Of a stretch of DNA of 52,822 bases, positions 6,445-52,822 are shown one piece after another. The notes below the pieces were generated by a model, which had not been told where the DNA came from, ran no database searches, and was given only the letters and a program-made list of their open reading frames with translations. This stretch comes from Spartobacteria bacterium. Its GTDB lineage: Bacteria > Verrucomicrobiota > Verrucomicrobiia > Chthoniobacterales > UBA10450. Position 1 is the stretch's first letter. Each line of letters begins with the position of its first letter. The DNA lies in assembly GCA_003169975.1 (NCBI GenBank), contig PNAA01000038.1, forward strand, positions 1-52,822. The letters are read 5' to 3'. The position numbers and the translations under genes were made by a program.

Positions 6445-6570
6445 CGAACTCGAGACGCGGCGAGTGCGCCGTATCGCCCTGGATCGAAATGGCAGCCAAA
6501 TTCTTAAAAAAATTTGCTTCCATCGGCGACGCTTATTGATCTATTGTCGGAAGCTATAAATTACAATTCC

Positions 6571-9637: not shown

Positions 9638-9717
9638 ACGCGAGTTCGTTGCACTCTTCGATTCGGCGGACAATTCCGAAACCATCTCATCACGTTTCGA
9701 CGATGAACGCTCACCCG

Positions 9718-24044: not shown

Positions 24045-24068
24045 ATCATTTCGGCCGTTGGAGCCGAT

Positions 24069-24162
24069 GTATAGACGCTTCGCTCTGCGAAGCGCGGGCC
24101 GAGCGTCGCTCTCAGTTGCAGCATCGCCTTAACCCCCGTCGCCCGAAGGGCGATCGTCTACA
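24069..24162. repeat. REP-like palindromic element between the two giant genes
   Basis: Bounded by TGTATAGACG and CGTCTACA, it has inner hairpins CGCTTCG/CGAAGCG (about 24076-24095) and GTCGCCC/GGGCGA (24138-24153). It is a diverged copy of the element at 2332-2429. The rest of the intergenic gap (24045-24323) shows only a possible TTGACT at 24182 and no gene. Confidence 0.6.
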
Positions 24163-24323
24163 GAAGGCGTAAAATCGAAGCTTGACTCTTCCGCAGCGAT
24201 CCGTCAGAACGGTCGCGCATCAGTCGCGCGCTTATCCCCAGTTGGTTCGGTTTCGGTGCCGGACCGCAGCTGACGGCTCAGCGCCAGACCGAGCGCAATC
24301 TCCAACCGAAACGATCCTCAAAA

Positions 24324-27300: not shown

Positions 27301-28826
27301 TCGGCAACCAGATCATCGTCGCTGGCAGTGTTGGCGCCGGCGGAAACATTAGCGCAACCAACGGCATCACGATCACCGGCGGCTCACTCACGGCCGGTGG
27401 CGACATCACTTCTTCGGCCGGCGCGATCACTCAATCCCCGAGCGCGGTCGGTGAAATCGGCACCATTTCCGCGGGCGGGAATATCTTTGCTGCGGGCGGC
27501 CTCGAAGCTTTTTACTTCAACACCTCGATCACGGCCGGCGGTTCCATCACGGCGTCAGATGCTGCGGCCGTTACCTTGCAGGCGGGAACCGATATGACTA
27601 TCGGGCAAACCACGGGCCTGGCGCATTTCATTGACGCGAATACCATCACCGCGGGCGGGGCGCTTAGCCTCATCAATGTCGGCACCATCCAGGACGAGAC
27701 TTTTTCCAGCTTTGGCGATATCAACTTTACCCCGGATCCATTCACGCTCACGGCTAGTTCGATCAGCGGCGCCGGACCCGCGATCGCAAGTCTAATTTTT
27801 GACGGTTTCGCCGCCGACCCAAACTTTGGGAATGACAATCCCGGCAACGGCGGAATGGTAACACTTAACCTGACGGTCGGCGGCCTAACGATCGGCTCGG
27901 CCGGCGATATCGCCTCGATCACGGCCAGCGGCGGCGCTTTTGCGAGCGATTCTACGATTGGCGGGAACGGCGGCACGGTCAATATTAACGCGACCGGCGA
28001 CGTCAACCTGACCGATGGAAATATCATCGCCACCTCCGGCATCCTCGCCACGGGCGGCGCGAACACGATCGGAGACGGCGGCACGGTCAACGTCACCACT
28101 TCCGGGGCGATCAACGTCAGCTCCGCCATTCAAACGTCATCCGACGACGTCGAAGGCACGTCGCTGCGGCGGAGCGCAAAAGGCGGCAACATTAACCTCA
28201 CGAGCAACAAGGCGACCGGCGTCGCGATTAACGTCACCAACAGCGCCCAGCTCCTCGCCTTGCTCGACGCGGCCGCGCCCGGCCCCGGCGGCACGATCAC
28301 GATCGTCGCCACCGGCGCGAGCAGCACCGCCAACGTCCAGGGCACGATCGAGGCCGATCGCGGCACCGTCGATATCCATCACAACGGCGACAGCGGCGTG
28401 GTCAACATCAGCGGAGTGGGCGGCACTAATTCCGCCTTTATCCGCGGCGACATCGTGAAGATCGGCGCGCTCGGCAACAACGGCATCCTCACCATCGGCC
28501 AGGGCACGCTCTCGGCCGATAGCATGCTGCAGCTCTACGCCAACGGCTCCAACGGCCAGATCCTGTTCGTCGACAACGTCACCATCGGCGGCGGCAGCGC
28601 CACCATTATCGCCGGCAACACGGTCACCATTAACAACACCAAAACCGTCACCGTCACCGGGACGAAGGCGGACGTTTATACCGGCTTCAACGGCGAGGTG
28701 CCGAACGCCAACTACACCGGCTCGGGTGGGAACGGCTCCACCAGCGGAATGTTCGGCGGCCTGGGCGCGAACAATCCGCAGCCGATCAGCAATGCGCCGC
28801 CCTTCAAGCCGACCCACGGCGGCTAG
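24324..28826 (+). CDS. second giant FecR-domain surface protein
   Basis: This 1500-aa paralogue of the preceding giant protein starts with a different signal peptide ([14 protein letters not shown]) but an almost identical FecR segment. About 635 bases (24451-25087) match 17554-18190 with around a dozen differences. The linker is built of [10 protein letters not shown] units. The central beta-helix is unrelated in detail, lacks the 187-aa repeats, and is rich in GGxxTxxGDxT strands. The C-terminus ([43 protein letters not shown]) matches the first protein's end at the protein level only. It has its own 279-base upstream region. Cell-surface role likely; exact function unknown. Confidence 0.85.
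25190..25375 (+). repeat. 30-bp coding repeats for the Pro/Ser linker
   Basis: Near-perfect tandem units of 30 bases (containing CCGAGCCCTTCGCCGAC) encode [10 protein letters not shown] about four times. This follows the shared FecR segment, at the place where the paralogue has its TPTPTATA linker. Confidence 0.8.
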
Positions 28827-39988: not shown

Positions 39989-40313
39989 ATATTTTGACAA
40001 TTGGCAAGGTGGTGAAGATTGAGGAATGGTGCGAGCGCACGGATTTGAGTTCGAAGGCGCAATTTATCACCTGACGGCGCGGGGCAATCGGCGGGAGCGA
40101 ATCTTTGCTGGTGGCGCCGGAATATGGCTTGGCCGCGCGCAATGTCGCTTTGTGGGCGGTGTGGCAGCTTTGCGATTTGACGTTGCGGGAGATCGGCACA
40201 ATTTTCGGCGGGATGGATTACGCCGCGGTGGCCCAGCGAATCAGGCGTTTGGAACGCAACAAATCGCTGCAGAGTGATTTGAGAAAACTGTTGCAACAAT
40301 GTCAAAATGTTTA
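39986..40313 (+). mobile_element. decayed REP-associated tyrosine transposase (RAYT) element
   Basis: Terminal inverted repeats CTAAATATTTTGACA (39986-40000) and TGTCAAAATGTTTAG (40299-40313) match at 14 of 15 bases. Inside, 40026-40115 encodes the N-terminus of a Y1_Tnp/RAYT transposase (HGFEFEGAIYHLTARGNRRE, with the first histidine region), and another frame to 40312 encodes its C-terminus (LREIGTIFGGMDYAAVAQRIRRLE). The central catalytic part is deleted, so it is inactive. It is preceded by GGGGTCGGG, a motif related to the palindrome at 49207. Confidence 0.8.
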
Positions 40314-40461
40314 GGGCGTGTTGCTCAAACGCCCTTTCTGTAATGAGGGAAAAAGACGAAGTCACAGAATGACCTGTAGCGCATTTTGATTTTGCGGCAG
40401 GGTGATTTGACCCCCTCACTTAGCAACGTTTGTGGCTAAAGCCGATTTGGGCAACACGCCC
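40314..40461. mobile_element. 148-bp MITE-like element
   Basis: Ends GGGCGTGTTGCTCAAA (40314-40329) and TTTGGGCAACACGCCC (40446-40461) form inverted repeats with one mismatch. It encodes nothing. The ends resemble TTTGGGCAACAGCCC at 52462-52476, beside the IS transposase fragment, so an IS of that type could have mobilised it. It is inserted directly after the RAYT remnant. Confidence 0.65.
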
Positions 40462-40721
40462 ATTTAGACGCGACCCCTGTTACCACAAGCTGGTTTTGAG
40501 CCTCATTTGAGCCTCTTCCGAACGATTCCTTGTAAAAGCGGACGCTGTCTCACAAACGACCGTTTTTGCGACCCTTGGATATTTGACCGCTTCTGCGCCT
40601 GCCCCACAATTTCCAGATGATCTGAAGAGTGTGCGCAACCATGGACACGGTTTCCTAACTTCGCCGGGCCGACGAGCATTATGTCTGGAAGGTGCGCCGG
40701 TAAGATGGATATACTGGAGAG
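40462..40721. promoter_or_regulatory. lanB upstream region with possible promoter
   Basis: This is the gap before the lanthipeptide cluster. TATACT at 40707-40712 could be a -10 box and GGAGAG just before the ATG a ribosome binding site, but they lie so close that only one may be used. The same TATACTGG occurs upstream of lanC1 (about 44611). No regulator gene is nearby. Otherwise the stretch may be transposon debris. Confidence 0.3.
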
Positions 40722-43700
40722 ATGCAGGATTTTTTGAGTTCGGACTTTTTCGTTCTGCGAACGCCTTTGTTGCCGTTTGATGAAGTAGCTGCGTTTAGCG
40801 AGGGATTGGAAGCAGCCGCTATATGCGAAAATCCCGCGGCACTGGGGTTGGCGATTGGCCGGGATCGGGCGCGGCTGCGGACTCGAATGCAAACCATCGT
40901 CGGGCGACCTGAGATTCGCGAGGCACTTTTTGTGGCTTCACCGCCTTTCGATGAAGCGATCGAACACTGGCTAAGCGACCCGGAAAGCGAGCGAGCTTCG
41001 GGAATTGAGCGTGCGTTGCTGCGCTACTTTGTCCGCATGACGGCGCGCCCGACGCCTTTCGGATTGTCCGCCAGTTGTTCAGTGGGATTGCGTGGCGATA
41101 AAACATTTCTCCTCCTGGGGGAGCGCAGGAAATACCGGCGTCACACTTACCTCGCGACAAAGTATCTATTCGCCCTAACCGATACGTTGCGGGGCGATCC
41201 GGCATTACGGACCGCCTTTCTCTACCGTCCAAACTCCAGCCTCTATCGTTCCGCGGGACGCGTTCGTTATGTAGCCTGGCGTCCGACGGAGAAAGAACTC
41301 TCTTATCACCTCGTCTCGGCCGAGGAAACGGAAGCTCTGCTTTCCAGTCTGGCCTGCGCCGAAGCGGGCGCGACCTTTGATTCGTTAGTTGAAGGACTCG
41401 TCAGTGAGGAGGTTACTCAGAACGAAGCCGAGGCCTACATTGCTGAGTTAACCGAAAGTCAGATTCTGCTGGCCGATATTCCGCTAACGGTAAGCGGACG
41501 CGAACCCGTCGATTCTCTCGTTGAGGGATTGCGGCAGAGTCCCCTAACGAATCAAATCGCGGAAAGCCTGGGCGAGGCACAACGGGCACTCGCGGGCCTC
41601 GATCACGCCGGGCTCGGTGTCGAGCCGCGACGCTATCAGGCAGTGGCTCGCCTGCTTGAGGCTCTCCCGGGGGAGATGGATGCAAACCATCTTTTCCAAG
41701 CCGAGCTGATTAAGCCGATGGTGCGGGCGACGATCAGCGATGCGGTGGTCGCTGAGGTGGCACGCGGCGTGCAGTTACTGCATCGTCTTCAGGCGCGCCC
41801 GAGAGACGAGGAGCTGAGAAGGTTTCGCGAGCGGTTCGAGCAGCGTTACGAGTTGCGGGAAATTCCGCTCTTACAGGCGCTGGACGAGGAAGAGGGAATC
41901 GGCTTCGAGTCCTCGCGCGATGTCAGTCCATTGCTGAAGGGAGAGAATGTTTCTCCGGGCGAGGGCGAAGTTGCGCCGTGGGGCGCGCGTGAAAATTTCC
42001 TGCTCGAGAAGTTGGGCGAAACTCTGCGCCGCGCGAACCGGGAGATGGTGCTGACTCGGGAAGACGAGGTCGCAATTGGGCCAAAGGATTCGGCGCCTTT
42101 ACCTGATGCTTTTGCGGCGGTGGTTACCCTTGCCGCGGCGACGGAGAGCGATTTAGATCGCGGGAATTTTCGCCTCGTGCTGCACAACGTTTTTGGACCT
42201 TCAGGGGCGCGCTGGCTCGGCCGATTTTGCTATTCCGCGCCGGAGCTTGTGCCGCTTGTGGAGCGGCATCTTCGGGCCGAAGAAGCGCTTCAACCGGAGG
42301 CGATATTTGCCGAGATTGTCCACCTCCCGGGCCGGCATTTCGGTTTCCTTTGCCGGCCTTCCCTCCGCGACCATGAGATTCCTTATCTCGGCTACTCCGG
42401 TCTGCCCGCTGCGCAACAAATTCCCGCCACCGATCTCACTGTTTCCGTGCGCAGAGAGCGCGTGGTCCTTCGCTCAACGAGGCTGGGCCGTGAAATCATT
42501 CCGCGTCTTACCTCCGCCCATAACCACGGGCAGAGCAGCCTCGGCGTTTACAAGTTTCTCTGTGCCCTCATGGAGCAGGATCAATCGAGCCAGTTGGGGT
42601 GGGATTGGGGCGTCCTAAAGGCGGCGGAATTTTTGCCGCGGGTAACGAGCGGCCGCTTCATCCTCAGCCTCGCGCGCTGGCGCGTCTCCTTAAAGGAATT
42701 GAAGCGCTTTCGTGAACCTAACGGGGCCGCTCTTTTCCAGACGATCCAAGCCTGGCGTCGCGAGCGACAGTTACCGCGCTGGGTGGCCGTGGCCGACGCC
42801 GATAACGTTCTGCCGATCGATCTCGACAACGTGCTCAGTGTGGAAATGTTTGTTCACCTCGTCAGGCACCGCGAAGAAGCGACCTTGATTGAAGTGTTTC
42901 CTGGCCCCGGTGAACTTTGCGTCCATGGACCGGAAGGCAGCTTCGTCCATGAATTGATCGTTCCGTTCGTCAGGGCGAACCAAAAAGAATCAATTCCAGT
43001 TCCGACGAAAGCCTCCCCGGTCCCCGTCGAAGCTATCCGGCGAAGTTTTCCGCCCGGCTCCGAGTGGCTCTTTGCCAAGCTTTACCTGGGAGATGCCGCG
43101 GCTGACGATGTCCTGCTCCAGACCGTCGCCCCCCTGGTCCGCGAAGTTGGTGCTTCGGGCGCGGCAGAGCAATGGTTCTTTATTCGCTATGCCGATCCGG
43201 ATCCCCATTTGCGCCTGCGTTTTCGGGGCCGGCCGGAAAGGCTGCACGGCGAAGTGCTGCCCGCCCTCCAAAAGGCGCTTTCTCCGCTGGCCGATAACGG
43301 ACCGGTTTGGCGCTGGCAGCTCGACACCTACGAGCGCGAGCTGGAACGCTACGGCGGTCCGGAAGGGATGTTGATTGCCGAGCGTTTTTTTCAAGTAGAT
43401 AGCGAGGCCGTGCTGGAAATTTTGGCCCTGCTGGAATACGGCGATGCCGGGCTGGACGAACGTTGGCGCTTGGCCTTGCGTGGAATCGACTTCCTCCTTT
43501 CAGACTTTGGCCTCGACCTAACGAGCAAATGCGCATTCTTCAAAGAGATGCCAAAGTATTTTGTCGAGATGTCGCGGGTCGACCATGCGATGCGGGTCGA
43601 GCTCGGGGAAAAGTTTCGCCGCGAACGCGCCAGTCTGGAAGAGATTCTTGATCCTGCCTGCGACGCCGGGAGTCCGTTGGCACTCGGATTTGAGGTCCTG

Positions 43701-43922
43701 CGCCGCCGATCCGCGCAGATGGCACCCATAATGGCTGACTTGAGAGCGAGCATGGAAGCGGGGCGCTTTCTCGTTTCCCTCGATAGCTTCATCGCCAGCT
43801 TCCTTCACATGCAGGTCAACCGGCTCTTGCGTTCCTCGCACCGCAGGCAGGAATTGGTGATTTACGAACTTCTCTCCCGCCTTTACCAATCGCTCAATGC
43901 CCGGGGGCGTGACCACCCCTGA
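40722..43922 (+). CDS. lanB: class I lanthipeptide dehydratase LanB (full length)
   Basis: This 1066-aa enzyme would dehydrate Ser/Thr in the precursor cores using glutamyl-tRNA. The N-terminal lantibiotic-dehydratase domain (about 1-750) includes RYFVRMTARPTPFGLSAS and RVVLRSTRLGREIIPRLTSAHN. The C-terminal elimination domain of the SpaB_C type (about 775-1060) includes EWLFAKLYLGD, QWFFIRYADPDPHLRLRF and HMQVNRLLRSSHRRQELVIYELLSRLY. Both domains are in one chain, as in NisB. ATG follows GGAGAG. Two precursor genes follow directly, and its last ~150 bases are duplicated between them. A long reverse-strand frame here is a shadow. Confidence 0.93.
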   Translation: MQDFLSSDFFVLRTPLLPFDEVAAFSEGLEAAAICENPAALGLAIGRDRARLRTRMQTIVGRPEIREALFVASPPFDEAIEHWLSDPESERASGIERALLRYFVRMTARPTPFGLSASCSVGLRGDKTFLLLGERRKYRRHTYLATKYLFALTDTLRGDPALRTAFLYRPNSSLYRSAGRVRYVAWRPTEKELSYHLVSAEETEALLSSLACAEAGATFDSLVEGLVSEEVTQNEAEAYIAELTESQILLADIPLTVSGREPVDSLVEGLRQSPLTNQIAESLGEAQRALAGLDHAGLGVEPRRYQAVARLLEALPGEMDANHLFQAELIKPMVRATISDAVVAEVARGVQLLHRLQARPRDEELRRFRERFEQRYELREIPLLQALDEEEGIGFESSRDVSPLLKGENVSPGEGEVAPWGARENFLLEKLGETLRRANREMVLTREDEVAIGPKDSAPLPDAFAAVVTLAAATESDLDRGNFRLVLHNVFGPSGARWLGRFCYSAPELVPLVERHLRAEEALQPEAIFAEIVHLPGRHFGFLCRPSLRDHEIPYLGYSGLPAAQQIPATDLTVSVRRERVVLRSTRLGREIIPRLTSAHNHGQSSLGVYKFLCALMEQDQSSQLGWDWGVLKAAEFLPRVTSGRFILSLARWRVSLKELKRFREPNGAALFQTIQAWRRERQLPRWVAVADADNVLPIDLDNVLSVEMFVHLVRHREEATLIEVFPGPGELCVHGPEGSFVHELIVPFVRANQKESIPVPTKASPVPVEAIRRSFPPGSEWLFAKLYLGDAAADDVLLQTVAPLVREVGASGAAEQWFFIRYADPDPHLRLRFRGRPERLHGEVLPALQKALSPLADNGPVWRWQLDTYERELERYGGPEGMLIAERFFQVDSEAVLEILALLEYGDAGLDERWRLALRGIDFLLSDFGLDLTSKCAFFKEMPKYFVEMSRVDHAMRVELGEKFRRERASLEEILDPACDAGSPLALGFEVLRRRSAQMAPIMADLRASMEAGRFLVSLDSFIASFLHMQVNRLLRSSHRRQELVIYELLSRLYQSLNARGRDHP

Positions 43923-43988
43923 TTTTATCTCTTGACTTGCCTGCTTTCTGGCTCTAGCAGGCATCATAGAACTAAAGAACGGGAAACT

Positions 43989-44150
43989 ATGTCAAAAAAA
44001 CCAGCGAAAAATAAGCCAGACAAGCTCAAACTGCGCAAGGCGACCGTGAAGGACTTGAGCGTCCGCTCCGCCCAGGCGGACAAGTTAAAGGGCGGTATGG
44101 CGAATACGGGTCCTACGTGTGGTGGGGAGACTTGCGCCACTCGTAGCTAG
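43989..44150 (+). CDS. lanA1: lanthipeptide precursor 1
   Basis: This 53-aa peptide has a leader that is Lys-rich and contains KLKLRKATVKDLSV, a typical LanB-binding type motif, and ends in KLKGG. The predicted core MANTGPTCGGETCATRS has 2 Cys and several Thr/Ser. GGGAAACT before the ATG is the likely ribosome binding site. Upstream, GCCTGCT/AGCAGGC around 43940-43964 forms a hairpin between lanB and this gene, which may set the precursor level. It is a tandem duplicate of the gene at 44409. The frame open upstream to 43932 is spurious. Confidence 0.88.
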   Translation: MSKKPAKNKPDKLKLRKATVKDLSVRSAQADKLKGGMANTGPTCGGETCATRS

Positions 44151-44184
44151 CGAAATTAGAGCATCTCTGAAGTCTGCCGAGAGC

Positions 44185-44341
44185 GCGATTTCTCGCGTCC
44201 CTCGATAGCTTCATCGCCAATTTCTATCAGATGCAGTCAACCGGCTCTTGCGTTCCTCGCACCGCAGGCAGGAATTGGTGATTTACGAACTTCTCTCCCG
44301 CCTTTACCAATCGCTCCGTGCCCGGGGGGTGGCCAACCCTG
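44185..44341 (+). pseudogene. duplicated 3' tail of lanB between the precursors
   Basis: About 150 bases nearly identical to 43765-43922, the end of lanB (coding VSLDSFIA ... NRLLRSSHRRQELVIYELL), repeated after precursor 1 and followed by a copy of the lanB-lanA spacer. A small deletion and several changes have broken the frame. It is a by-product of the tandem duplication that produced precursor 2. Confidence 0.85.
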
Positions 44342-44408
44342 ATTTTTTCCCTTGACTTGCCTGCTTTCCGGCTCTAGCACGCATCGTAGAACCAAAGAAA
44401 GGGAAACT

Positions 44409-44579
44409 ATGTCAAAAAAACCAGCGAAAAGTAAGCCAGACAAGCTCAAACTGAGCAAGGCGACCGTAAAGGACTTGTCGGTCAGCCCAAGCCAGGCAAA
44501 CAAGTTGAAAGCCGGCGCGCGGGACGAGACGTTCGCTTGCCCGACTAATATAATGTGTTGCTACGGGGGGACCAAATAA
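44409..44579 (+). CDS. lanA2: lanthipeptide precursor 2
   Basis: This 56-aa peptide has the same leader as precursor 1 with few changes (KLKLSKATVKDLSVSPSQANKLK) but a different core. The leader ends KAG rather than KGG, and the core is ARDETFACPTNIMCCYGGTK: 3 Cys and 3 Thr, so up to three rings. GGGAAACT lies before the ATG, as in copy 1. The hairpin arm upstream has one change (AGCACGC), weakening the stem. The core has diverged far more than the leader or the flanking DNA, which points to selection for a new product. Confidence 0.88.
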   Translation: MSKKPAKSKPDKLKLSKATVKDLSVSPSQANKLKAGARDETFACPTNIMCCYGGTK

Positions 44580-44725
44580 CAATCAGAAAGTAAACGACGG
44601 CGGGAGTATGCTATACTGGTACTGCTAGTTGCCCTTATCTGCCCTAAGCACTGGCATAAACACATAATAGAGATGAGTCAGGCCGGGTGAACGATTCGAC
44701 AGCTACGAAGAGCTTGCAGTTGTAA

Positions 44726-46006
44726 GTGGCACTCCTCAGGTTGGGCCGAGATTGCTCGCGGGAGGACGAGCTGGCTTCATTCCCCTTACCTGGGTCAATT
44801 TATCTAAAGGCCACACCAAGGGATGCTTGGTATTGGCTATTACTGTCCCTTTTGCACTCCAAACCTTCCGCGAGAAAACTGACTGCTGGGAAAACCTTCA
44901 TCGCGGCGTTTCTCCGTGACTGTGAAGCTGGCGGCGAAGCTCTCAGCCAAACCTTCCGTTCCCCTCCTACCTGCTCCGTCCATCACGGCGCAGCGGGGAT
45001 TGCCCTTCTTCTCTACAAGCTGGGGTACGATCGCGACGATCGATTTCTTCTTTCCTCGGCCGAGCGATGGGTCAGGCGCACGTCGCGGCATGTTGCCAGC
45101 CCGGAGGCTTTCTATAATCCGGCTCCCGCTTGGGACATCACCGAAAAGTCGGTCGGCCGGATGTCGCTCCTTTTTTGCGAAAGCGGAGTCCGGTGCGTCC
45201 AGGCACTAATCGCTCTGGGACTCGGGCGGCAGCGGGCTGCGCGCAGTGCCGTCGCCCTCTTTCTTCGACTATCCGAAATTGCGGAACGCCGCCACGAACT
45301 GACCATCGGTAAGGGGGGAATGCTTTTGGGCTGCGCATTGCTCCTGGACTCCCTGCCCAATTCTGCCCGGCAATCGCGCAAACAAGTCCGGGCGCGAGGA
45401 GAGCAAATCTATCGCCAGATGATAAAGCTCCCAACCGCCGGTCCAGCCCTTCCGGTAAAACGTCTCGGCATCGCCCATGGACGGGCCGGCATTCTTTACG
45501 CGCTCCTCCTTTGGCACGACGCAACTGGGCGACCCGTCTCACCGCGACTATCGGCGGCACTCAAGAAGCTTGCCGAGATGGGTCAGGAAATAGGCTCCGC
45601 CGCCCGCTGGGAGCATACGCAGGGGAAGGGCGAGTATTGGAGCGGCTGGTGCAATGGCACCGCCGGCTACGTTTTTCTCTGGACTCTGACCGCGCGTCTT
45701 CTTTCCCACCCCGGCTATCTGGAGTTAGCTGAAATGGCGGCACAACATACCTGGCAAGTCGGCAGCGCTAATTTGAGTCTCTGCTGCGGTGCGATCGGCG
45801 ATGGATATGCCTATCTCAATCTTTATCGCGCGACCGGCAAGGCCTTATGGCTGCAAAGAGCGAGAAGCTCCGCGAGGTTGGCGATGGGTGTTGAAGATCA
45901 CTCGCTCTACCGCGGCCGTGCCGGGGTCGTGGCTTTACTCAGCGATCTTGATCATCCCAAGACCTCATGGATGCCTTTCTTCGAGCGAACACGTCATTCT
46001 CCTTAG
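44726..46006 (+). CDS. lanC1: LanC-like lanthionine cyclase with Cys-Cys-Gly zinc motif
   Basis: This 426-aa alpha/alpha-toroid cyclase would join Cys to dehydrated residues. GxxG repeats are visible (HHGAAGIALLLYKLG, GIAHGRAGILYALLLW, GTAGYVFLW, RGRAGVVALL). The acid/base histidine is H251 (AHG). Zinc ligands are C309 (GWCNG) and C353-C354 (LCCGAIG): the usual CHG is CCG here, and the Tyr after the first Cys is Asn. Three-Cys sites are known from ProcM-like LanM enzymes with relaxed substrate use. Start GTG 44726 is the only reasonable start. No dehydratase domain is attached. Confidence 0.85.
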   Translation: MALLRLGRDCSREDELASFPLPGSIYLKATPRDAWYWLLLSLLHSKPSARKLTAGKTFIAAFLRDCEAGGEALSQTFRSPPTCSVHHGAAGIALLLYKLGYDRDDRFLLSSAERWVRRTSRHVASPEAFYNPAPAWDITEKSVGRMSLLFCESGVRCVQALIALGLGRQRAARSAVALFLRLSEIAERRHELTIGKGGMLLGCALLLDSLPNSARQSRKQVRARGEQIYRQMIKLPTAGPALPVKRLGIAHGRAGILYALLLWHDATGRPVSPRLSAALKKLAEMGQEIGSAARWEHTQGKGEYWSGWCNGTAGYVFLWTLTARLLSHPGYLELAEMAAQHTWQVGSANLSLCCGAIGDGYAYLNLYRATGKALWLQRARSSARLAMGVEDHSLYRGRAGVVALLSDLDHPKTSWMPFFERTRHSP

Positions 46007-46093
46007 CGATTAAATTTTGCCATACCGATTTCACCGAGATTCAGGCTTGTCGCACATTTAGAAGATCGCCCTACGGTTTGATAAGTTTTTCTG

Positions 46094-47377
46094 GTGCCGA
46101 AGACTAAAGACGACACTTGGACACCCATCCTGGAAGACAGTTCTCGCTTCCAGGCCCTCGATGTAATTGACTCGATCGCCAAGAGCCTCTGTAAGCGAGC
46201 GGTCAAGGAGGCATCGCTCGCTGGCGGAACGGCAGGGCTAGCGCTCTTGTATGCATATCTTGCGCAAGCGCGATCTGGTCGCGACGATCAAGAAGTATCG
46301 GCGAAGCTTCTGGAGAAAGCAAGCGACGCCATGGCCGCGCAAAGAATGGGGCCTTCCTTTTTTGGTGGATTCACCGGCATAGCTTGGGCTGTTGCCTATC
46401 TCGAAAAGCGGCTCCTCGATTCCGAGAGAGAAGATGCCTGCGAGGCAATTGACGAAGCACTTGAAATTTATCTTAGCCGGCCATCTTGGCGGGGAGACTA
46501 CGACCTGGTAAGTGGCCTGGTTGGTTACGGTGTCTACGCGCTGGAACGTTTGCCGCAAAATAGCGCAGTGCATTGTCTGAAGCTGGTAGTTAGCCGGCTT
46601 GAAGAGATTGCCGAGCACACTAAGTCGGGTGTCACCTGGCCCACCGCGCCGGAGCTACTTCCGGATTCTACCCGCAAGGATTTCCCATTGGGGTACTACA
46701 ACCTCGGTCTGGCGCATGGCGTGCCAGGAGTGGTCGCGTTCCTCGGCCATGTTTGCGCAACTCACGATAACAGACTTGGGGCGATCCGTGTTAAGGCCCG
46801 TTTATTACTGGAAGGGGCAGTATCCTGGCTCCTGGCGCAACAGCCAGCGGATCAGACGCAGCCTTTCCCCTGCCACATCGCTCCCGACATGCCTTCTATT
46901 CCAGCTCGGGTAGGCTGGTGTTATGGCGACCTGGGAATCGCCGTAGCTCTTCTGGGAGCGGCCCGTTGTGTCAGCAAACGAAGCTGGGAACGGGAAGCGC
47001 TGTTAATCGGCCGTCGGGTGGCAGCGCGCCCGGCGGAACAATCGGGCGTGGTGGATTGCGGGCTTTGCCATGGTGCGGCTGGAGTCGGCCATCTTTTCAA
47101 TCGTTTGTTTCAAGCCACTGGGGAGAAATGTTTCTCTACCGCCGCGCGCTTCTGGTTTAAGCGGCTTTTTGAAATGCGGCGACCCAAGCAAGGTATCGCC
47201 GGCTTTGTCGCATTTATGCCGAACCCTGGACGGCCTAACGACAAACAATGGATCGCCATGCCGGGCATTCTCGAAGGCGCCGCCGGCATCGCACTCGCAC
47301 TGCTCGCTGCCGCCACACCTATCGAACCGGAATGGGACCGAATGTTGTTATTGTCTGGGCGGAGCGCGCTGTTATGA
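46094..47377 (+). CDS. lanC2: canonical LanC lanthionine cyclase
   Basis: This 427-aa cyclase has the standard zinc site C276 (GWCYGDLG), C325 and H326 (GLCHGAAG), and histidine in LAHGVPG. Toroid repeats begin SLAGGTAGLALLYAYL and end PGILEGAAGIALALL. It follows lanC1 by 87 bases on the same strand; the two share fold but little sequence, so it is not a recent duplication. A GTG start is used. It overlaps the LanB-tail relic at its end. Two cyclases for three precursors suggest division of labour; this is inference. Confidence 0.92.
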   Translation: MPKTKDDTWTPILEDSSRFQALDVIDSIAKSLCKRAVKEASLAGGTAGLALLYAYLAQARSGRDDQEVSAKLLEKASDAMAAQRMGPSFFGGFTGIAWAVAYLEKRLLDSEREDACEAIDEALEIYLSRPSWRGDYDLVSGLVGYGVYALERLPQNSAVHCLKLVVSRLEEIAEHTKSGVTWPTAPELLPDSTRKDFPLGYYNLGLAHGVPGVVAFLGHVCATHDNRLGAIRVKARLLLEGAVSWLLAQQPADQTQPFPCHIAPDMPSIPARVGWCYGDLGIAVALLGAARCVSKRSWEREALLIGRRVAARPAEQSGVVDCGLCHGAAGVGHLFNRLFQATGEKCFSTAARFWFKRLFEMRRPKQGIAGFVAFMPNPGRPNDKQWIAMPGILEGAAGIALALLAAATPIEPEWDRMLLLSGRSALL

Positions 47378-47552
47378 GCGCAACGTCGAAGCATTGTTCG
47401 ATCCGTACGAAAGAGAAAATCCTCTCTCCCTCCTGCCTGGGATTAGAATTATCCGTCGCCCACTCCCCCAGCTCACTCCGCTTGTCACCAAATTAAAGGA
47501 GGCTGCAGGCAGTAAATTGACAGTTGCGCTAGGCGAATTTCCGCTAGCCTGA
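47373..47552 (+). pseudogene. LanB C-terminal relic 1
   Basis: The frame reads YERNVEALFDPYERENPLSL ... RRPLPQLTPLVTKLKEA and stops. It aligns with the LanB stretch ERASLEEILDPACDAGSPL ... RRRSAQMAPIMADLRA, i.e. about 120 to 75 residues before the end. No start or upstream LanB sequence precedes it, and the terminal helices are missing. It is a decayed copy of another dehydratase, more divergent than the duplicated tail at 44185. Confidence 0.75.
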
Positions 47553-47609
47553 CCCGTATGCAGGCCAATCGGGCTGCTCCGCTTCGCACAGCGCGCTAAC
47601 GAAAGCGGT

Positions 47610-47765
47610 TCATACACAAGTCTCGTACGTGTTGGGCCTGATGCGGGCACCGCCGCGGACCGCGTGGCCTTTCGCTCCAGGCGACAAATCACGCAGCGTT
47701 TCTTTGTTCAGCGCGAGTTTCTTTTGGGGTTTTTTCCCTGCTGTTTTTTTAGTTTTCGTTGTCAT
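47610..47765 (-). CDS. lanA3: lanthipeptide precursor 3 (51 aa, opposite strand)
   Basis: The minus strand encodes a 51-aa peptide from ATG 47765 to TGA 47610. A strong ribosome binding site, GAGAAAGGAAAC, precedes the ATG. The leader is MTTKTKKTAGKKPQKKLALN followed by KETLRDLSPGAKGHAVRGG: the KLALNKETLRDL stretch is the classic class I leader motif, and VRGG is a GG-type cleavage site. The predicted core is ARIRPNTYETCV, with one Cys, two Thr and no Ser, so a single ring is possible. It is the last gene of a minus-strand unit with an oxygenase and a membrane peptide. Confidence 0.85.
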   Translation of the reverse strand: MTTKTKKTAGKKPQKKLALNKETLRDLSPGAKGHAVRGGARIRPNTYETCV

Positions 47766-47777
47766 GTTTCCTTTCTC

Positions 47778-47888
47778 TTAGTTAACGGCTTCGTCATGAA
47801 TGAGACCTATAATTAGGCTCAGTCCTGCGCCGATCAAGCCTAAAATGTCGAATGCCGTTATGGCAGCCGTGCGGCAATGCAGGCACAA
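47778..47888 (-). CDS. 36-aa membrane peptide upstream of precursor 3
   Basis: A short minus-strand frame ends 12 bases before the precursor 3 start. From TTG 47888 it reads MCLHCRTAAITAFDILGLIG and then AGLSLIIGLIHDEAVN: one clear hydrophobic helix and an acidic end. It lies between the oxygenase gene (28 bases away) and the precursor in the same direction. It could be an immunity or assembly peptide, but no family is recognised and the start codon is weak. Coding status is moderate. Confidence 0.45.
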   Translation of the reverse strand: MCLHCRTAAITAFDILGLIGAGLSLIIGLIHDEAVN

Positions 47889-47916
47889 ATGCCGTCAGGA
47901 TGTTTCGAAACGCTGG

Positions 47917-48639
47917 TTAATTGAAGACGCCAACGTTGAGGCTAATGGAGAAGTTGCCCATCGCCTCACCGATGTGCCAGTAGCTCGACGGCCAATAAAT
48001 GAGATCGCCCGCTGCGCCCTCGAGGGTAATCGCTCCAGCCAGAAACCGCCGGTATCTTAGCTCACCCGTGATCTTTTCCGCATCGGGGAAGAAAGCGCTC
48101 GGCCACGCCCGAAATCTTTTTCGTCCCTCAACGACAAAAACGAATGTGCCGTGCGGATCTTTATGGATGCCCACCGGTGTGCGTTCATAATCGCCCAGGA
48201 ACAAAAGCGTCTTTGACTGCACATCCAACCGAACCAGGCGTTGGAGCGTTCGGAGAAACTTGCGGATTCGCGTGCGAATCCTCGCGTCGAACTCAGGATA
48301 ATCCACCACCACGAGGCCAAACCGGGCGCCATTTAGTGATTGCCGGATTCTTTCGCGGTACCCCTTGAAGTTGCCGTCGGTGGGCCGCGGAAGGTTGCGT
48401 TTAACACCCGAGCGATGAATCTCATCATCGACGAAAAATCGTAGATAACGTTTCTGTGCGCGGCCAAGTTCGTCACGCACTTCCACGATCACGCGGAATA
48501 TCTGCGCCGTAGTCGTGATCGGCGCAGCAAAAGGATGCTTTAGAACGAGCGGCTGGTTCTCCCAATACTGTTTCGCGAACCGCGTCCCAAAACGGGCAGA
48601 CAGGCAATATTCGCCCTCATGGCTTCGGCATTCGGTCAT
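47917..48639 (-). CDS. cupin/JmjC-like Fe(II)/2-oxoglutarate oxygenase
   Basis: This 240-aa protein has a C-terminal double-stranded beta-helix. The metal triad is visible: H159 and D161 (GIHKDPHGTFVFVVEG) and H222 (GDLIYWPSSYWHIGEA). The N-terminal half (WENQPLVLKHPF) matches the cupin_4/JmjC-like hydroxylase layout. Such enzymes hydroxylate amino-acid side chains; some act on RiPP precursors. Start ATG 48639 is preferred; an ATG at 48705 is in frame but runs into the LanB relic on the other strand. It leads the minus-strand unit that ends with precursor 3. Confidence 0.8.
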   Translation of the reverse strand: MTECRSHEGEYCLSARFGTRFAKQYWENQPLVLKHPFAAPITTTAQIFRVIVEVRDELGRAQKRYLRFFVDDEIHRSGVKRNLPRPTDGNFKGYRERIRQSLNGARFGLVVVDYPEFDARIRTRIRKFLRTLQRLVRLDVQSKTLLFLGDYERTPVGIHKDPHGTFVFVVEGRKRFRAWPSAFFPDAEKITGELRYRRFLAGAITLEGAAGDLIYWPSSYWHIGEAMGNFSISLNVGVFN

Positions 48640-48687
48640 TGGCGCTTCATCATTTTGGGCTAATCCCCCTGGCAGATCAAGCGTAGA

Positions 48688-48912
48688 ATGCCTACGCGAC
48701 CTCATCGATTGACGCCAATCGTCGCTAAACTGAAAGCTCTTGATCAGGCCGGCCGCTTAGGCGGGCCGGTGAACGAGCTGGCGCCGGGTTACGTTCAGAT
48801 GCACGTCAACCGCATGCTGCGCTCGGCGCAACGGGCGTTTGAAGTGGTGTGCTATGACTTCCTCGGGCGACTTTTCGACGCGCAGACTGCGCGGCAGAAG
48901 AGATGCATTTAG
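48688..48912 (+). pseudogene. LanB C-terminal relic 2
   Basis: The frame reads HRLTPIVAKLKALDQAGRLG ... APGYVQMHVNRMLRSAQRAF then VVCYDFLGRLFDAQ. It aligns with the last 65 residues of the intact LanB (MAPIMADLRAS ... FLHMQVNRLLRSSHRRQELV). It starts where relic 1 breaks off, but the two overlap in the TPxVxKLK block, so they are either different copies or one gene split with rearrangement. Nothing resembling the rest of LanB lies upstream. Confidence 0.78.
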
Positions 48913-49140
48913 ATTCACGCTCGCGGCTGATGACTTGGTGAACAACCGCGGATCGCCGACGACTACTTGTCGGAGGCGTCGCGAGTGAGAGCGGACTAAT
49001 TATTTGCTTGCCCTCAGCGCACCTCGGATGATTATTCAAAGACAGTGATCCACGCATTTGCGTGAATCCGCCTGGCTTGTTCGCAGTCTGGAGAGAGAGT
49101 AAGACGCTAGACGCCTTTAGCCCGTGCCCCAGCCTGGATC

Positions 49141-49175
49141 GGCGGGGGATTTTTTTGCTCTATGAAATCCCCGCC
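49141..49175. terminator. GC-rich hairpin in the gap after the lanthipeptide cluster
   Basis: GGCGGGGGATTT (49141-49152) pairs with AAATCCCCGCC (49165-49175), one G bulged. Internal T and A runs could form a bidirectional terminator, but there is no T-tract after the stem. The gap 48913-49410 holds this, the palindrome at 49207 and no gene I can support. Confidence 0.45.
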
Positions 49176-49206
49176 AGATGCAATTCGAAATGCGGCGGGG
49201 AAAATA

Positions 49207-49247
49207 GGAAAATAGGGGTCAGGCAGCCTGCCTGACCCCTATTTTCC
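49207..49247. repeat. 41-base perfect palindrome (RAYT-type REP)
   Basis: GGAAAATAGGGGTCAGGCAG at 49207-49226 is exactly inverted at 49228-49247 around one base. The AGGGGTCAGGC motif recurs near 49860-49872 and 52557-52567 and, degenerate, at 39975-39985 beside the RAYT remnant. It therefore looks like a REP unit of the RAYT family. Confidence 0.8.
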
Positions 49248-49410
49248 TTTCCTAGCACACTCCCCATTTTTTCGGCGTCCGCAGGCCGTTTGCAACGCGC
49301 CTGCAGGCGCGAAGAAAAGGCGGGGCACCGCGAGCGGCATCCGGCCTCCCATACACTACAGCTTCTGTCTCTGCCGACGCCGTGCAATCGCTTTGCAGTC
49401 AGAAAATCGC

Positions 49411-49680
49411 TTATTCGCCCCGTAACTGCTTCTCAAGTTCAGCCGTCGCCCGCTTTAGGTTCACGGCCGCTTCCTCCTTCGAGAACAAATAAGCTTCATC
49501 GCGGCGCTTTTCGAAGGACTTTACAACTTTTCGTCGATCGCCTGTCTGCTTAGCGCGCATTTGGATCACCAATTCGGCGAGGGCACTTACACTCGCCAGC
49601 GTGCTCCGGATCTCGTTCAACAATTCCATTAGCAGCGCGTGTTGCGCTGCGATCTCGGCAAGGATTTGAGGTTCTTCCAT
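49411..49680 (-). CDS. small coiled-coil protein
   Basis: This 89-aa, highly helical, charged protein (EIAAQHALLMELLNEIRSTL, then SFEKRRDEAYLFSKEEAAVN and KRATAELEKQL) has no membrane segment or known motif. The ATG has only a weak ribosome binding site. Amino-acid composition is sensible and the codon pattern looks coding, but I recognise no family. It stands between REP palindromes. Confidence 0.5.
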   Translation of the reverse strand: MEEPQILAEIAAQHALLMELLNEIRSTLASVSALAELVIQMRAKQTGDRRKVVKSFEKRRDEAYLFSKEEAAVNLKRATAELEKQLRGE

Positions 49681-49793
49681 CCCGCAACACTAAACGAAAG
49701 ATTGCGCGATCGACCAGCGCAAAAAAGCCTGTCCCAAGTCTCGTGCGGTTTTTCTGGAGCGGAGATATGGTGCCAATGTGCAAATCTGGACAC

Positions 49794-49889
49794 GAAGCAA
49801 TCTTTCAGGACGAGGCGGACCGGCGGTTTCTTTAGGAATGGATTCGCTGTCAAGAAATGATGCCTGACCCCTAGTTTCCCCCTTTCGCG
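49794..49889. repeat. direct repeat, copy 1 (about 90 bp)
   Basis: The segment from GAAGCAATCTTTCAGGACGA to the CCTGACCCCTAGTTTCC end is about 94% identical to 52492-52585, in the same orientation and 2698 bases away. It contains the REP core (on the minus strand GGGGTCAGGCATCATTTCTT). The two copies bracket the MFS, deacetylase and IS region. Confidence 0.85.
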
Positions 49890-49992
49890 CAACAGCGGCC
49901 GTGGCAACTGCCGGGCGGCGAAGTGCCAATGCGCGAACCCAAGCCGGCTGCCGAACTGCAGCCGTAGCGGCCGAAAAACCGCAGCGGGATCG

Positions 49993-51174
49993 CTACTGCC
50001 GCTCCGATCGTTTTGCGAATAGGAAAATCGGAAGCGCAAGGAGCTGGATGACGACCGAAAAGATAATCACGGCGGAAATTGATCTTTGGTAGAGCACGCC
50101 CATTAACCAGCTACCGAGGAACCAAGCGACGCCGAATCCGGTATCGAACACGCCGAAAGCGGTGCTGCGTTTATTCGAATGAATGACGCCGGCGATGAGA
50201 GCGCTGAGCAACGAGCCTTGCGCGCTCATGCCGATTCCCCACAACGCCATTCCGAGCAATGCGATCCAGCCGCTACCGAGAAAAACGAGCGGCGCGAAGA
50301 ACGCGGAGAGGAAGAAGACAACGAGAACGACAGTGAGGCCGATCTTGTCGAACAGCTTCCCAAAAATAAGTGCGCCAAGCGCGCCCATCGCCATCGCCAC
50401 CGCGTAGTAAATCGGGATCAGGTTCGTAGCGACTGCCGCTGTTTTTTGGAAATGGAAAGCGATCAGCGCGAAATCGGCGAAGCCTGCGCCGATACACGCG
50501 TTCGCGGCCATGTAGAGCCAGAATGCGAGCGGAAATTTTCCTGGCGCGATGGACTCGGTGACTTCGAGATGTTGCGGATCAGGAAAGAAATAGCGCGCGA
50601 TGAGAACAATCGCGATGGCGAGCAATGCCGGGATGAGAAGGAGCGCGAAACCGTTCTGATAACTCCCGTGGCGAAACAGGACGAACGCGAGGACAAGCGG
50701 GCCAATCGTTGCGCCGGTCTGATCGAGCGCCTCGTTCAAACCGAAGACCCAGCCATGCCCGATTTGTTTGCCGGCGAAAGAAAGCATCGCTTCGGTCGCT
50801 GGTTTTCGAATTGCGCGGCCAGTTCGCTCGGCAATAATCAACCCTGCGGCAATCGGCCAATTTCCGGCGAGCGCCAGCGCGGGAACGGCCAGCATGTTGA
50901 CGACGTAGCCGACAACCGTGACGACCCAATACTTGCCAGTTTTATCGCTAATGATTCCTGAGACGGAGCGCAGCGCGTAGCCGAGAAGTTCCCCAAACCC
51001 AGCGGTGAATCCGACGACTGCTGCGCTCGCGCCGAGCGTCCCGAGAAATTGACCGGTTGAGCTGCGCGCGCCCTCGTAGTTCAAATCGGCAAACAGATTC
51101 GCGATGCCGAGAATGAGCACGAAGCGAAAAGCGCTCGAAGCCGCGAGCGATTTTTTACCGCCGTCGTGCTTCAT
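49993..51174 (-). CDS. MFS transporter
   Basis: This 393-aa major facilitator has about 12 hydrophobic helices. Motif A-like loops are visible: SGIISDKTGKYW after helix 2 and GKLFDKIGLT in the second half. The N-terminal stretch NLFADLNYEGARSSTGQFL resembles a subgroup often annotated as MFS drug/unknown exporters. The substrate is unknown. It lies 15 bases downstream of the polysaccharide deacetylase on the same strand, so they may be one transcript. It could export a product of the neighbouring lanthipeptide cluster, but it lacks any peptidase and there is no direct evidence. Confidence 0.88.
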   Translation of the reverse strand: MKHDGGKKSLAASSAFRFVLILGIANLFADLNYEGARSSTGQFLGTLGASAAVVGFTAGFGELLGYALRSVSGIISDKTGKYWVVTVVGYVVNMLAVPALALAGNWPIAAGLIIAERTGRAIRKPATEAMLSFAGKQIGHGWVFGLNEALDQTGATIGPLVLAFVLFRHGSYQNGFALLLIPALLAIAIVLIARYFFPDPQHLEVTESIAPGKFPLAFWLYMAANACIGAGFADFALIAFHFQKTAAVATNLIPIYYAVAMAMGALGALIFGKLFDKIGLTVVLVVFFLSAFFAPLVFLGSGWIALLGMALWGIGMSAQGSLLSALIAGVIHSNKRSTAFGVFDTGFGVAWFLGSWLMGVLYQRSISAVIIFSVVIQLLALPIFLFAKRSERQ

Positions 51175-51188
51175 GGATTAGCCGGGAC

Positions 51189-51962
51189 TTATGGGGTCGG
51201 CATCGGAGCCGCCGGGGGCGGCGGTGGCGGGGGACTGACGGCCAGCGATAGCAACTCGGAAACGGTGACGAACTTAAATCCTTTCGCCAGCAGAGTATCG
51301 AAAGTCTCGGGCATCGCAGCGATGGTCTGCGCATGAATATCGTGCGAAAGTATGATCGAACCGGGTCTCGTTCCTTTGATGATTCGCTGCGCGACTATCG
51401 ACGGGCCGGGTTCTCTCCAATCCATTGGATCGACATCCCACAAGATCACTTTGTAGCCGAATTCGCGGTTCACCCATTGCCGCTGTTTCGGCGTCAGCTC
51501 GCCGTATGGAGGGCGCATAAGTGTCGGATGCGAACCGATCGCTTGCGCAATGATGTCATCGGTACGCTGAAGCTGGCTGCGAAGCGCGTCGTTGGACAGT
51601 TTGGCCAGATTTGGATGCGACCACGAATGGTTGCCGATCTCATGCCCTTCAGCGACCGCGCGTTTCAGTATCTCAGGATGCCGCGCTACGTTCTCGCCCA
51701 GGACGAAGAAAGTCGCCTTGATTTTTTTTCGCGCGAGCAAATCGAGAAGCTTCGGCGTGAGGGTCGCGTGCGGGCCATCGTCGAATGTCATCGCAACGTA
51801 GGGGCCGGGGACGTGAATAAAACTGTAAGTGACTTTGGGCGCTGGGGTGGCCTGTGGTCCGGGCCTCTGCGAAACGTCCCGAGGGGATTGCAGATCTGCC
51901 GTCTGCCCAGGGGCGATGCTCGTCAGCAGGCAAAGAAATATTGTTAAGCGCGCTGACGTCAT
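51189..51962 (-). CDS. secreted polysaccharide deacetylase (NodB domain)
   Basis: This 257-aa CE4-family enzyme has a signal peptide (to about residue 20). Motif 1 is TFDDGPH, the metal histidines are in GNHSWSHPNL, motif 3 is RPPYG, motif 4 WDVDPMDW and motif 5 ILSHDIH, so the active site is complete. It would remove acetyl groups from peptidoglycan or another N-acetylated glycan in the periplasm. The end is a Pro-rich tail (SPPPPPPPAAP). The MFS gene follows after 14 bases. Confidence 0.93.
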   Translation of the reverse strand: MTSARLTIFLCLLTSIAPGQTADLQSPRDVSQRPGPQATPAPKVTYSFIHVPGPYVAMTFDDGPHATLTPKLLDLLARKKIKATFFVLGENVARHPEILKRAVAEGHEIGNHSWSHPNLAKLSNDALRSQLQRTDDIIAQAIGSHPTLMRPPYGELTPKQRQWVNREFGYKVILWDVDPMDWREPGPSIVAQRIIKGTRPGSIILSHDIHAQTIAAMPETFDTLLAKGFKFVTVSELLSLAVSPPPPPPPAAPMPTP

Positions 51963-51969
51963 GGCAGAG

Positions 51970-52476
51970 ATCGCAGGCGTTACCGCTCCTGGTCAATCAG
52001 CCCCGCCTCCAGACACTGCGCCACACTTTGACGAAAAAGCCGGGCAAAGACTTCCGCCCCCAGCGCCGCCGCGCCTTCGAAAGCACGCTATGATTGGGAA
52101 TCTCGTCCTCCAGGCTGTAACCCAAAAACCAGAGATAATCGATCCGCAGCGGGATGATCCGCATCAGCTCCCGCTCGCTGCGCACGTTGTCCCAGAAGAG
52201 CAGGAGCATCATCTTCATCACGATCACCGGATCGACTGAGACGTTGCCCTTGCGCCCGTAGGAGCCCGCCACCTCCTCGCGCACGAAATCCAAATTGACT
52301 GTCTCCCGGAGCTTGCGCAGCGGATGATCCGCTGGGATCCGCCGGGCCAGGTTCACCGGCTCACTCCACAATTCGTTCTGTTTGGCATGCCGTCCCATCA
52401 TGGGAACAGTGCTTTATCAAATCCCAGTTCTCTTGGGTACTATTATTTTTTACCCCCTCCATTTGGGCAACAGCCC
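51970..52476 (-). mobile_element. IS transposase remnant (IS1182/IS5-like N-terminus)
   Basis: The frame 51997-52401 encodes the N-terminal DUF772-type part of a transposase (PVNLARRIPADHPLRKLRET, SVDPVIVMKMMLLLFWDNVRSERELMR). A frameshift follows; the next residues (QCLEAGLIDQER) appear in another frame and then the homology ends. The likely terminal repeat TTTGGGCAACAGCCC lies at 52462-52476. The catalytic C-terminal part is missing, so this is an inactive 5' fragment next to the deacetylase gene. Confidence 0.82.
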
Positions 52477-52491
52477 GGCAAATCTTGACAG

Positions 52492-52585
52492 GAAGCAATC
52501 TTGCAGGACGAGGCGGACCGGCGGTTTCTTTGGGAATGGATTCGCTGTCAAGAAATGATGCCTGACGCCTATTTCCCCTTCGCGT
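52492..52585. repeat. direct repeat, copy 2 (about 90 bp)
   Basis: Second copy of the segment at 49794-49889. It begins 16 bases after the IS terminal repeat and ends just before the alpha/beta hydrolase stop codon. Confidence 0.85.
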
Positions 52586-52601
52586 CCCTCACGGCTGACC
52601 A

Positions 52602-52822
52602 TTATTTGGCTAATACGTCAAGCAAGAATTCGATCACATCGGGGCTGATCTTACTCCAGTAGGCGAAAGCGTGTCCGTGTCCAGAGTATACCGTCTGCTG
52701 GTAATTCTTCGCCCGCACACTATTTAGTTGGGCTATCAGGTCAGTAATTTGCTGAGGCGGCATAGATTCGTCCGCAGATGCATAAAGCAGGAGCGGTGAC
52801 ATGGGTGCCTTGATGAACGCGA
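52602..52822 (-). CDS. alpha/beta hydrolase, C-terminal part (runs off the window)
   Basis: The frame is open at the window edge, so only the last 73 or so residues are seen. PLLLYASADESMPPQQ carries the catalytic-acid aspartate region, and YSGHGHAF the catalytic histidine, as in dienelactone-hydrolase-like enzymes. The serine nucleophile would lie outside the window. An internal ATG at 52802 is not the likely start. Confidence 0.8.
   Translation of the reverse strand, partial: AFIKAPMSPLLLYASADESMPPQQITDLIAQLNSVRAKNYQQTVYSGHGHAFAYWSKISPDVIEFLLDVLAK

What the first reader, a model, noticed from the sequence alone, without database searches (positions are those of the whole stretch)
47610..47765. 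Third precursor peptide hidden on the opposite strand
A 51-codon minus-strand frame with a strong GAGAAAGGAAAC site encodes a leader with KLALNKETLRDL and an RGG site, then core ARIRPNTYETCV. It is too short for ordinary gene callers and is antisense to the main cluster. The core has a single Cys, two Thr and no Ser, so the ring pattern would be minimal.
Basis: seen in the sequence. Interest (0 to 1): 0.8.

Follow-up and report, generated by a model that had tools for sequence, protein, structure and literature searches.

The report
Third lanthipeptide precursor beside JmjC oxygenase
A 51-residue gene on the opposite strand next to a bacterial peptide-antibiotic-type cluster is very probably a real third precursor peptide of that cluster; it sits behind a gene for a JmjC-type oxygenase that probably decorates it, which makes it a sensible but not revolutionary addition to a known family.

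Summary
The 51-codon minus-strand frame exists as described. It carries the published class I 'LxLxKx5L ... GG' leader (KLALNKETLRDL ... RGG) and a 12-residue core, ARIRPNTYETCV. The leader matches NCBIfam lant_leader_L1a only below its cut-off (18 vs 22 bits). With a leader HMM built from 42 leaders of other LanB clusters it is the best of 636 window ORFs (21.4 bits; best of 100 shuffles 11.6). It also aligns to both plus-strand precursors. It is not antisense to any gene: it lies in the gap after LanC2, convergent with the cluster.

Its closest relative found sits in a Nonomuraea lanthipeptide cluster; other Cupin_8 genes adjoin single-Cys L1a precursors and LanB in Cupriavidus and Rhizobium.

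Best reading: a genuine class I precursor, cyclised by LanB and a LanC into one methyllanthionine ring (Thr7-Cys11), probably hydroxylated by the JmjC enzyme. Precursor identity is well supported; ring, hydroxylation and export are inferred. No orthologue of the peptide was found in sampled relatives, so conservation of this core is untested. New member of a known kind.

The parts
47610..47765 (-). P3: 51-aa candidate LanA precursor (leader residues 1-39, core 40-51, stop at 47610-47612)
   Evidence: open frame; lant_leader_L1a 18 bits; home-made HMM 21.4 bits vs shuffle maximum 11.6; blastp to P1 and P2
47649..47765 (-). leader with LxLxKx5L motif (L17-L27) and double-Gly G38-G39
   Evidence: sequence; motif definition in PMC7268733
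47613..47648 (-). predicted core ARIRPNTYETCV (Thr7, Thr10, Cys11)
   Evidence: sequence; boundary inferred from GG
47766..47777 (-). GAGAAAGGAAAC, Shine-Dalgarno-like
   Evidence: sequence; similar to the sites of P1 and P2
47917..48705 (-). JmjC/cupin-fold protein (MTECR... start at 48639 also possible), 151 nt upstream of P3 on the same strand; HKD...H metal-site residues intact
   Evidence: Pfam Cupin_8 and JmjC_2 above cut-off; alignment; profile search hits NO66, MINA, YcfD
40722..43922 (+). LanB, full-length class I dehydratase (N and C domains)
   Evidence: PF04738 and PF14028
43989..44150 (+). P1 precursor, core ...MANTGPTCGGETCATRS
   Evidence: LxLxKx5L motif and GG; 68% aa identity over 44 aa to P2
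44409..44579 (+). P2 precursor, core ...ARDETFACPTNIMCCYGGTK
   Evidence: tandem duplicate of the P1 unit
44726..46006 (+). LanC1, LanC-like with CCG zinc motif
   Evidence: PF05147; motif
46094..47377 (+). LanC2, LanC-like with CHG zinc motif
   Evidence: PF05147; motif

Best explanation
P3 is a genuine class I lanthipeptide precursor with an L1a-type leader. The leader is bound by the cluster's LanB, which dehydrates core Thr7 (and perhaps Thr10). One of the two LanCs then closes a single five-residue methyllanthionine ring, Thr7 to Cys11 (TYETC). The leader is cut after GG, probably by a C39-ABC exporter encoded elsewhere in the genome. P3 is probably expressed with the JmjC oxygenase gene just upstream on the same strand, and that enzyme most likely hydroxylates a core side chain (Arg2, Arg4 or Asn6 are the likeliest by analogy) before export. 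Shown here: frame, leader homology, paralogy, neighbours, intact metal-site residues. Inferred: expression, dehydration, ring, hydroxylation, protease.
For: Leader: NF038153 E 0.0024 against the library; best of 636 window ORFs with a leader HMM made only from other genomes, above all 100 shuffles; in 1.8 Mb of other loci the ORFs at or above its score are almost all precursor-like. Paralogy: 42% over 47 aa to P1 and 42% over 38 aa to P2 (E about 3e-5 to 6e-5 in a nine-sequence comparison), with a shared N-T-x-x-T-C spacing in P1 and P3 cores. Enzymes: full-length LanB, two LanCs with intact zinc-ligand motifs. Published motif LxLxKx5L ending in GG for class I precursors (PMC7268733). Neighbour: Cupin_8/JmjC_2 protein above Pfam cut-offs; its closest relative found (32%, Nonomuraea) lies in a cluster with a DUF4135 (LanM-type dehydratase) protein, a second cupin and a LanC. 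In Cupriavidus and Rhizobium a small L1a-leader peptide with a single-Cys SLWTC motif adjoins a Cupin_8 gene and LanB. JmjC precedent in another RiPP: BipG hydroxylates ornithine in biphenomycin (PMC12707348). C39-ABC exporter elsewhere in the genome.
Against: NF038153 score is under its curated cut-off, and similar scores occur by chance in other genomes of the phylum. Codon bias does not favour this frame over its antisense. No promoter or terminator signal stands out. No orthologue of P3 in 83 family genomes, and the oxygenase and LanB are as good as absent from sampled relatives, so no purifying-selection test was possible. The AlphaFold model of the oxygenase failed (pLDDT 30). Nothing shows which peptide the oxygenase acts on.
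Confidence: 0.78

Rival explanations
1. P3 is a decayed or relic precursor: a leader duplicated from the cluster or left from a second cluster, with a truncated core that is no longer made into product.
For: A truncated LanB C-terminus (48688-48912 +) abuts the oxygenase gene and a duplicated LanB tail lies between P1 and P2, so the island carries wreckage. The core is short (12 aa) with one Cys.
Against: Intact ATG, ribosome-binding site, leader motif, GG and stop; the oxygenase beside it has intact catalytic residues; single-Cys cores occur elsewhere.
Confidence: 0.12
2. P3 is a RiPP precursor whose main maturation is by the JmjC oxygenase (hydroxylated linear peptide), with LanB/LanC acting only on P1 and P2.
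For: Same strand and adjacency to the JmjC gene; two Arg and one Asn in a 12-residue core; JmjC hydroxylase in biphenomycin.
Against: The leader is the LanB-type L1a leader shared with P1 and P2, and the core keeps the N-T-x-x-T-C spacing of P1.
Confidence: 0.06
3. Chance open reading frame in an intergenic gap.
For: Short; no codon-bias signal; sub-threshold NF038153 score.
Against: Score never reached in 100 shuffles; correct position of motif, GG and Cys; paralogues 3 kb away.
Confidence: 0.04

Closest known systems
Class I lanthipeptide precursors with LxLxKx5L / lant_leader_L1a (NF038153) leader, described mainly from Bacteroidetes (PMC7268733)
   Same: Leader motif, double-Gly end, Cys and Thr in the core, LanB and LanC in the cluster
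   Different: Scores below the NF038153 cut-off; 12-residue single-Cys core; opposite strand; host outside Bacteroidetes (Verrucomicrobiota by inference)
P1 and P2 of the same cluster
   Same: Leader register; N-T-x-x-T-C spacing (P1); similar ribosome-binding site
   Different: Opposite strand, beside the JmjC gene, one Cys only
Cupriavidus oxalaticus and Rhizobium johnstonii LanB-Cupin_8-small peptide loci (L018, L021)
   Same: Small L1a-leader peptide with one Cys next to an Fe/2OG-type cupin and LanB
   Different: Long N-terminal extension before the leader motif, SLWTC motif, cupin without significant blastp similarity to the window's
BipG, JmjC ornithine hydroxylase of biphenomycin biosynthesis (PMC12707348)
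   Same: JmjC-domain oxygenase in a RiPP pathway
   Different: Not a lanthipeptide; substrate is Orn in a different precursor
Ribosomal oxygenases YcfD / NO66 / MINA
   Same: Profile similarity and HxD...H residues of the window's oxygenase
   Different: Those act on ribosomal proteins; the window protein is shorter and lies in a lanthipeptide cluster

Membership tests
Class I lanthipeptide precursor (L1a / LxLxKx5L type) | LxLxKx5L leader motif | tested here: met
   L17-A-L19-N-K21-ETLRD-L27; HMM 21.4 bits
Class I lanthipeptide precursor (L1a / LxLxKx5L type) | NF038153 score over the curated cut-off (22 bits) | tested here: not met
   18 bits. A naming threshold of one model, not a biological criterion; P1 and P2 do not match that model at all.
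Class I lanthipeptide precursor (L1a / LxLxKx5L type) | Double-Gly or other cleavage site before the core | tested here: met
   VRGG|ARIRP in the sequence; cleavage itself not tested
Class I lanthipeptide precursor (L1a / LxLxKx5L type) | Core with Ser/Thr and Cys able to form a ring | tested here: met
   Thr7, Thr10, Cys11
Class I lanthipeptide precursor (L1a / LxLxKx5L type) | LanB and LanC encoded nearby | tested here: met
   zinc-ligand motifs
Class I lanthipeptide precursor (L1a / LxLxKx5L type) | Lanthionine or methyllanthionine in the product | not testable with these tools
   needs co-expression and mass spectrometry
JmjC Fe(II)/2OG oxygenase (neighbour) | JmjC/cupin domain | tested here: met
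   PF13621 32.4 bits (cut-off 27.4), PF08007 28.6 bits (cut-off 22)
JmjC Fe(II)/2OG oxygenase (neighbour) | HxD...H metal triad | tested here: met
   GIHKD...YWHIG, aligned with the Nonomuraea homologue
JmjC Fe(II)/2OG oxygenase (neighbour) | JmjC fold by structure | tested here: inconclusive
   single-sequence model failed, pLDDT 30; profile hits to NO66, MINA, YcfD
JmjC Fe(II)/2OG oxygenase (neighbour) | Hydroxylates the lanthipeptide core | not testable with these tools
   inferred from gene neighbourhood only

The most novel reading that the evidence does not exclude
A dedicated, co-oriented pair: a JmjC ribosomal-oxygenase-like enzyme that hydroxylates Arg or Asn of a single-ring class I lanthipeptide, one instance of a wider, undescribed habit in which Fe/2OG cupins of at least two types (JmjC_2-like here and in Nonomuraea, Cupin_8 in Cupriavidus and Rhizobium) serve lanthipeptide clusters.
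Probability: 0.35. Interest if true: 0.55.

Novelty: new member of a known kind. Interest (0 to 1): 0.4.

Why it matters
It shows that a small opposite-strand frame belongs to a lanthipeptide cluster and ties it to an oxygenase type that the searched papers do not describe in lanthipeptide pathways (the only two papers naming both 'lanthipeptide' and 'JmjC' concern other systems). If the pair works as inferred, it offers a small, one-ring substrate on which JmjC tailoring of lanthipeptides could be tested directly, and a search handle (small L1a peptide plus JmjC/cupin) for similar clusters that miners restricted to the LanB strand or to above-threshold precursors may miss.

Tried and rejected
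Orthologues of P3 in 83 family genomes and of the oxygenase in 83 family and 286 class genomes: none. A genome-contig scan with the oxygenase alone found nothing. LanB in 384 class genomes: only one distant relative, G317. L1a leader model in 388 genomes of the phylum: three other hits; two inspected (L114, L116) are not convincing small precursor genes, L115 has an internal stop and was not examined further. tblastn of P3 against plasmids: none. Codon bias to choose the frame: uninformative. Rfam: nothing in 40000-52822. A stable hairpin or terminator after P3: none beyond chance. Streptomyces and Nostoc plasmid cupins similar to the oxygenase lie in contexts without annotated lanthipeptide genes, so the family is not RiPP-specific. 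The window oxygenase was first compared with the Cupriavidus/Rhizobium Cupin_8 proteins as possible orthologues: rejected, no significant similarity.

Full report
What was checked. The minus-strand frame 47765->47610 is present exactly as reported and encodes MTTKTKKTAGKKPQKKLALNKETLRDLSPGAKGHAVRGGARIRPNTYETCV. GAGAAAGGAAAC abuts the ATG. The frame lies in the 0.5-kb gap between the end of LanC2 (47377, +) and the end of the next minus-strand gene (47917); it is convergent with the lanthipeptide genes rather than antisense to one of them.

Setting. The cluster is LanB (40722-43922, full-length: PF04738 plus PF14028), P1 (43989-44150), P2 (44409-44579), LanC1 (44726-46006) and LanC2 (46094-47377), all on +, then P3 and a JmjC/cupin gene (47917-48705) on -. 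LanC1 has a CCG and LanC2 a CHG zinc motif; in LanM enzymes CCG is linked to substrate promiscuity (PMC10027976), which is only a lead for a stand-alone LanC. No dedicated transporter or protease gene was recognised in the cluster itself; a C39-peptidase ABC exporter with an adaptor-like neighbour is encoded on another contig. LanB was found in only one other of 384 class genomes, and only distantly, and the oxygenase in none, so the cluster looks like an accessory island. The window's genome is a 4.47-Mb, 59-contig assembly; that it is a Verrucomicrobiota genome is my inference from relatives' genome sizes, not a tool result.

Is P3 a precursor? (a) It satisfies the published class I motif LxLxKx5L with a terminal GG (PMC7268733). 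(b) NCBIfam lant_leader_L1a: E 0.0024, 18 bits, under the 22-bit cut-off. Alone this is weak: the whole-genome E is 0.034, and unconvincing hits of similar score occur elsewhere in the phylum. (c) A leader HMM built from 42 leaders taken only from other genomes' LanB loci ranks P3 first of 636 window ORFs at 21.4 bits; P1 follows at 11.5, P2 at 5.5; the maximum over 100 dinucleotide-preserving shuffles is 11.6. In 1.8 Mb of other loci, ORFs scoring at least 21.4 are almost all small precursor-like frames, though many of them were the training set, so this is a check on specificity rather than sensitivity. One training sequence, from L061, looks like a false frame antisense to LanB and was not removed. 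(d) blastp aligns P3 to P1 and P2 over the leader, and P1 and P3 share the spacing N-T-x-x-T-C in the core. Codon statistics are neutral.

Is the arrangement odd? No. Of about 29 LanB loci in which I could recognise L1a-type precursors, some 7-8 carry one on the strand opposite LanB (Comamonas L030, Archangium L044, Myxococcales L036 and L032, Smaragdicoccus L051, Rhizobium L021, Deltaproteobacteria L048, Frankiaceae L037), by hand count. Single-Cys cores also recur (L030, L036, L071, L018, L021). The Archangium leader KKQPKKLSLNKETLRNI is close to P3's KKPQKKLALNKETLRDL.

The oxygenase. The protein upstream of P3 exceeds the Pfam cut-offs of Cupin_8 and JmjC_2, keeps HKD...H, and a profile of it with six relatives hits the ribosomal oxygenases NO66, MINA and the L16 arginine hydroxylase YcfD among solved structures (E 5e-12 to 2e-7); the single-sequence AlphaFold model was useless. 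The closest relative found, in Nonomuraea gerenzanensis (32%), lies between a protein with a DUF4135 domain (the LanM-type dehydratase domain, from my own knowledge), a second cupin, and a LanC. Separately, Cupriavidus and Rhizobium LanB loci carry a Cupin_8 gene next to a small peptide with an L1a motif and a single Cys. A JmjC protein hydroxylates ornithine in the RiPP biphenomycin (PMC12707348). Against over-reading: Streptomyces and Nostoc relatives lie in contexts without annotated lanthipeptide genes.

Most likely working. LanB binds the P3 leader and dehydrates Thr7 (perhaps Thr10); a LanC joins Cys11 to position 7, giving one five-residue methyllanthionine ring; the JmjC enzyme hydroxylates a core residue; the leader is removed after GG on export. 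All of these steps are inference from the anatomy. Confidence: precursor about 0.8; JmjC acts on P3 about 0.5.

Novelty. The peptide is a new member of a known kind. The pairing of a JmjC-type oxygenase with a class I lanthipeptide was not found in the papers searched, but the library is partial, so absence there is weak evidence.

Noticed in passing
window 43763-44515: The LanB 3' end plus P1 was tandemly duplicated (copies 420-422 nt apart, 85-93% identical through the LanB tail and leader), but the P1 and P2 core regions are almost unalignable: a duplicated precursor unit whose core diverged much faster than its leader and than the dead LanB tail.
   Followed up: partly
window 48688-48912 (+): Truncated C-terminal fragment of a second, diverged LanB (PF14028 positions 201-253 of 255) overlapping the 5' end of the oxygenase gene; suggests the island is a mosaic with a lost second cluster.
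   Followed up: partly
window 44726-47377: Two LanCs in one class I cluster, LanC1 with a CCG and LanC2 with a CHG zinc motif; LanC1 resembles the LanC half of a kinase-LanC protein in Cupriavidus (34%), LanC2 a Streptomyces LanC (44%).
   Followed up: partly
L018:6565-6972 and L021:7534-7830: Cupriavidus and Rhizobium peptides with a long N-terminal extension, then an L1a-like motif (LTLERETIRNL / LPLKRESIRDL) and a single-Cys SLWTC motif, next to a Cupin_8 gene and LanB; the Cupriavidus locus also has a kinase-LanC fusion and a 2OG-FeII_Oxy_3 protein.
   Followed up: partly
L060, L064, L068, L071 (Mycobacterium LanB loci): L1a-type leaders followed by Cys-free, repetitive cores (GTGTGTG..., SGTSVINPSGG...), as in Myxococcales L032 (VSSVRP repeats): LanB clusters whose products may be dehydrated but not lanthionine-bridged.
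   Followed up: no
L113 (G000:C23), about 6328-10657: Exporter with two cyclic-nucleotide-binding-like stretches, C39 peptidase and ABC transporter, followed by an adaptor-like protein; the only C39 protein found in the genome and a candidate for leader removal in trans.
   Followed up: partly
window 17451-28826: Two very long ORFs (2197 and 1500 aa) that share a near-identical N-terminal stretch ([17 protein letters not shown]...), with low-complexity frames on the reverse strand: large repetitive, possibly secreted proteins.
   Followed up: no
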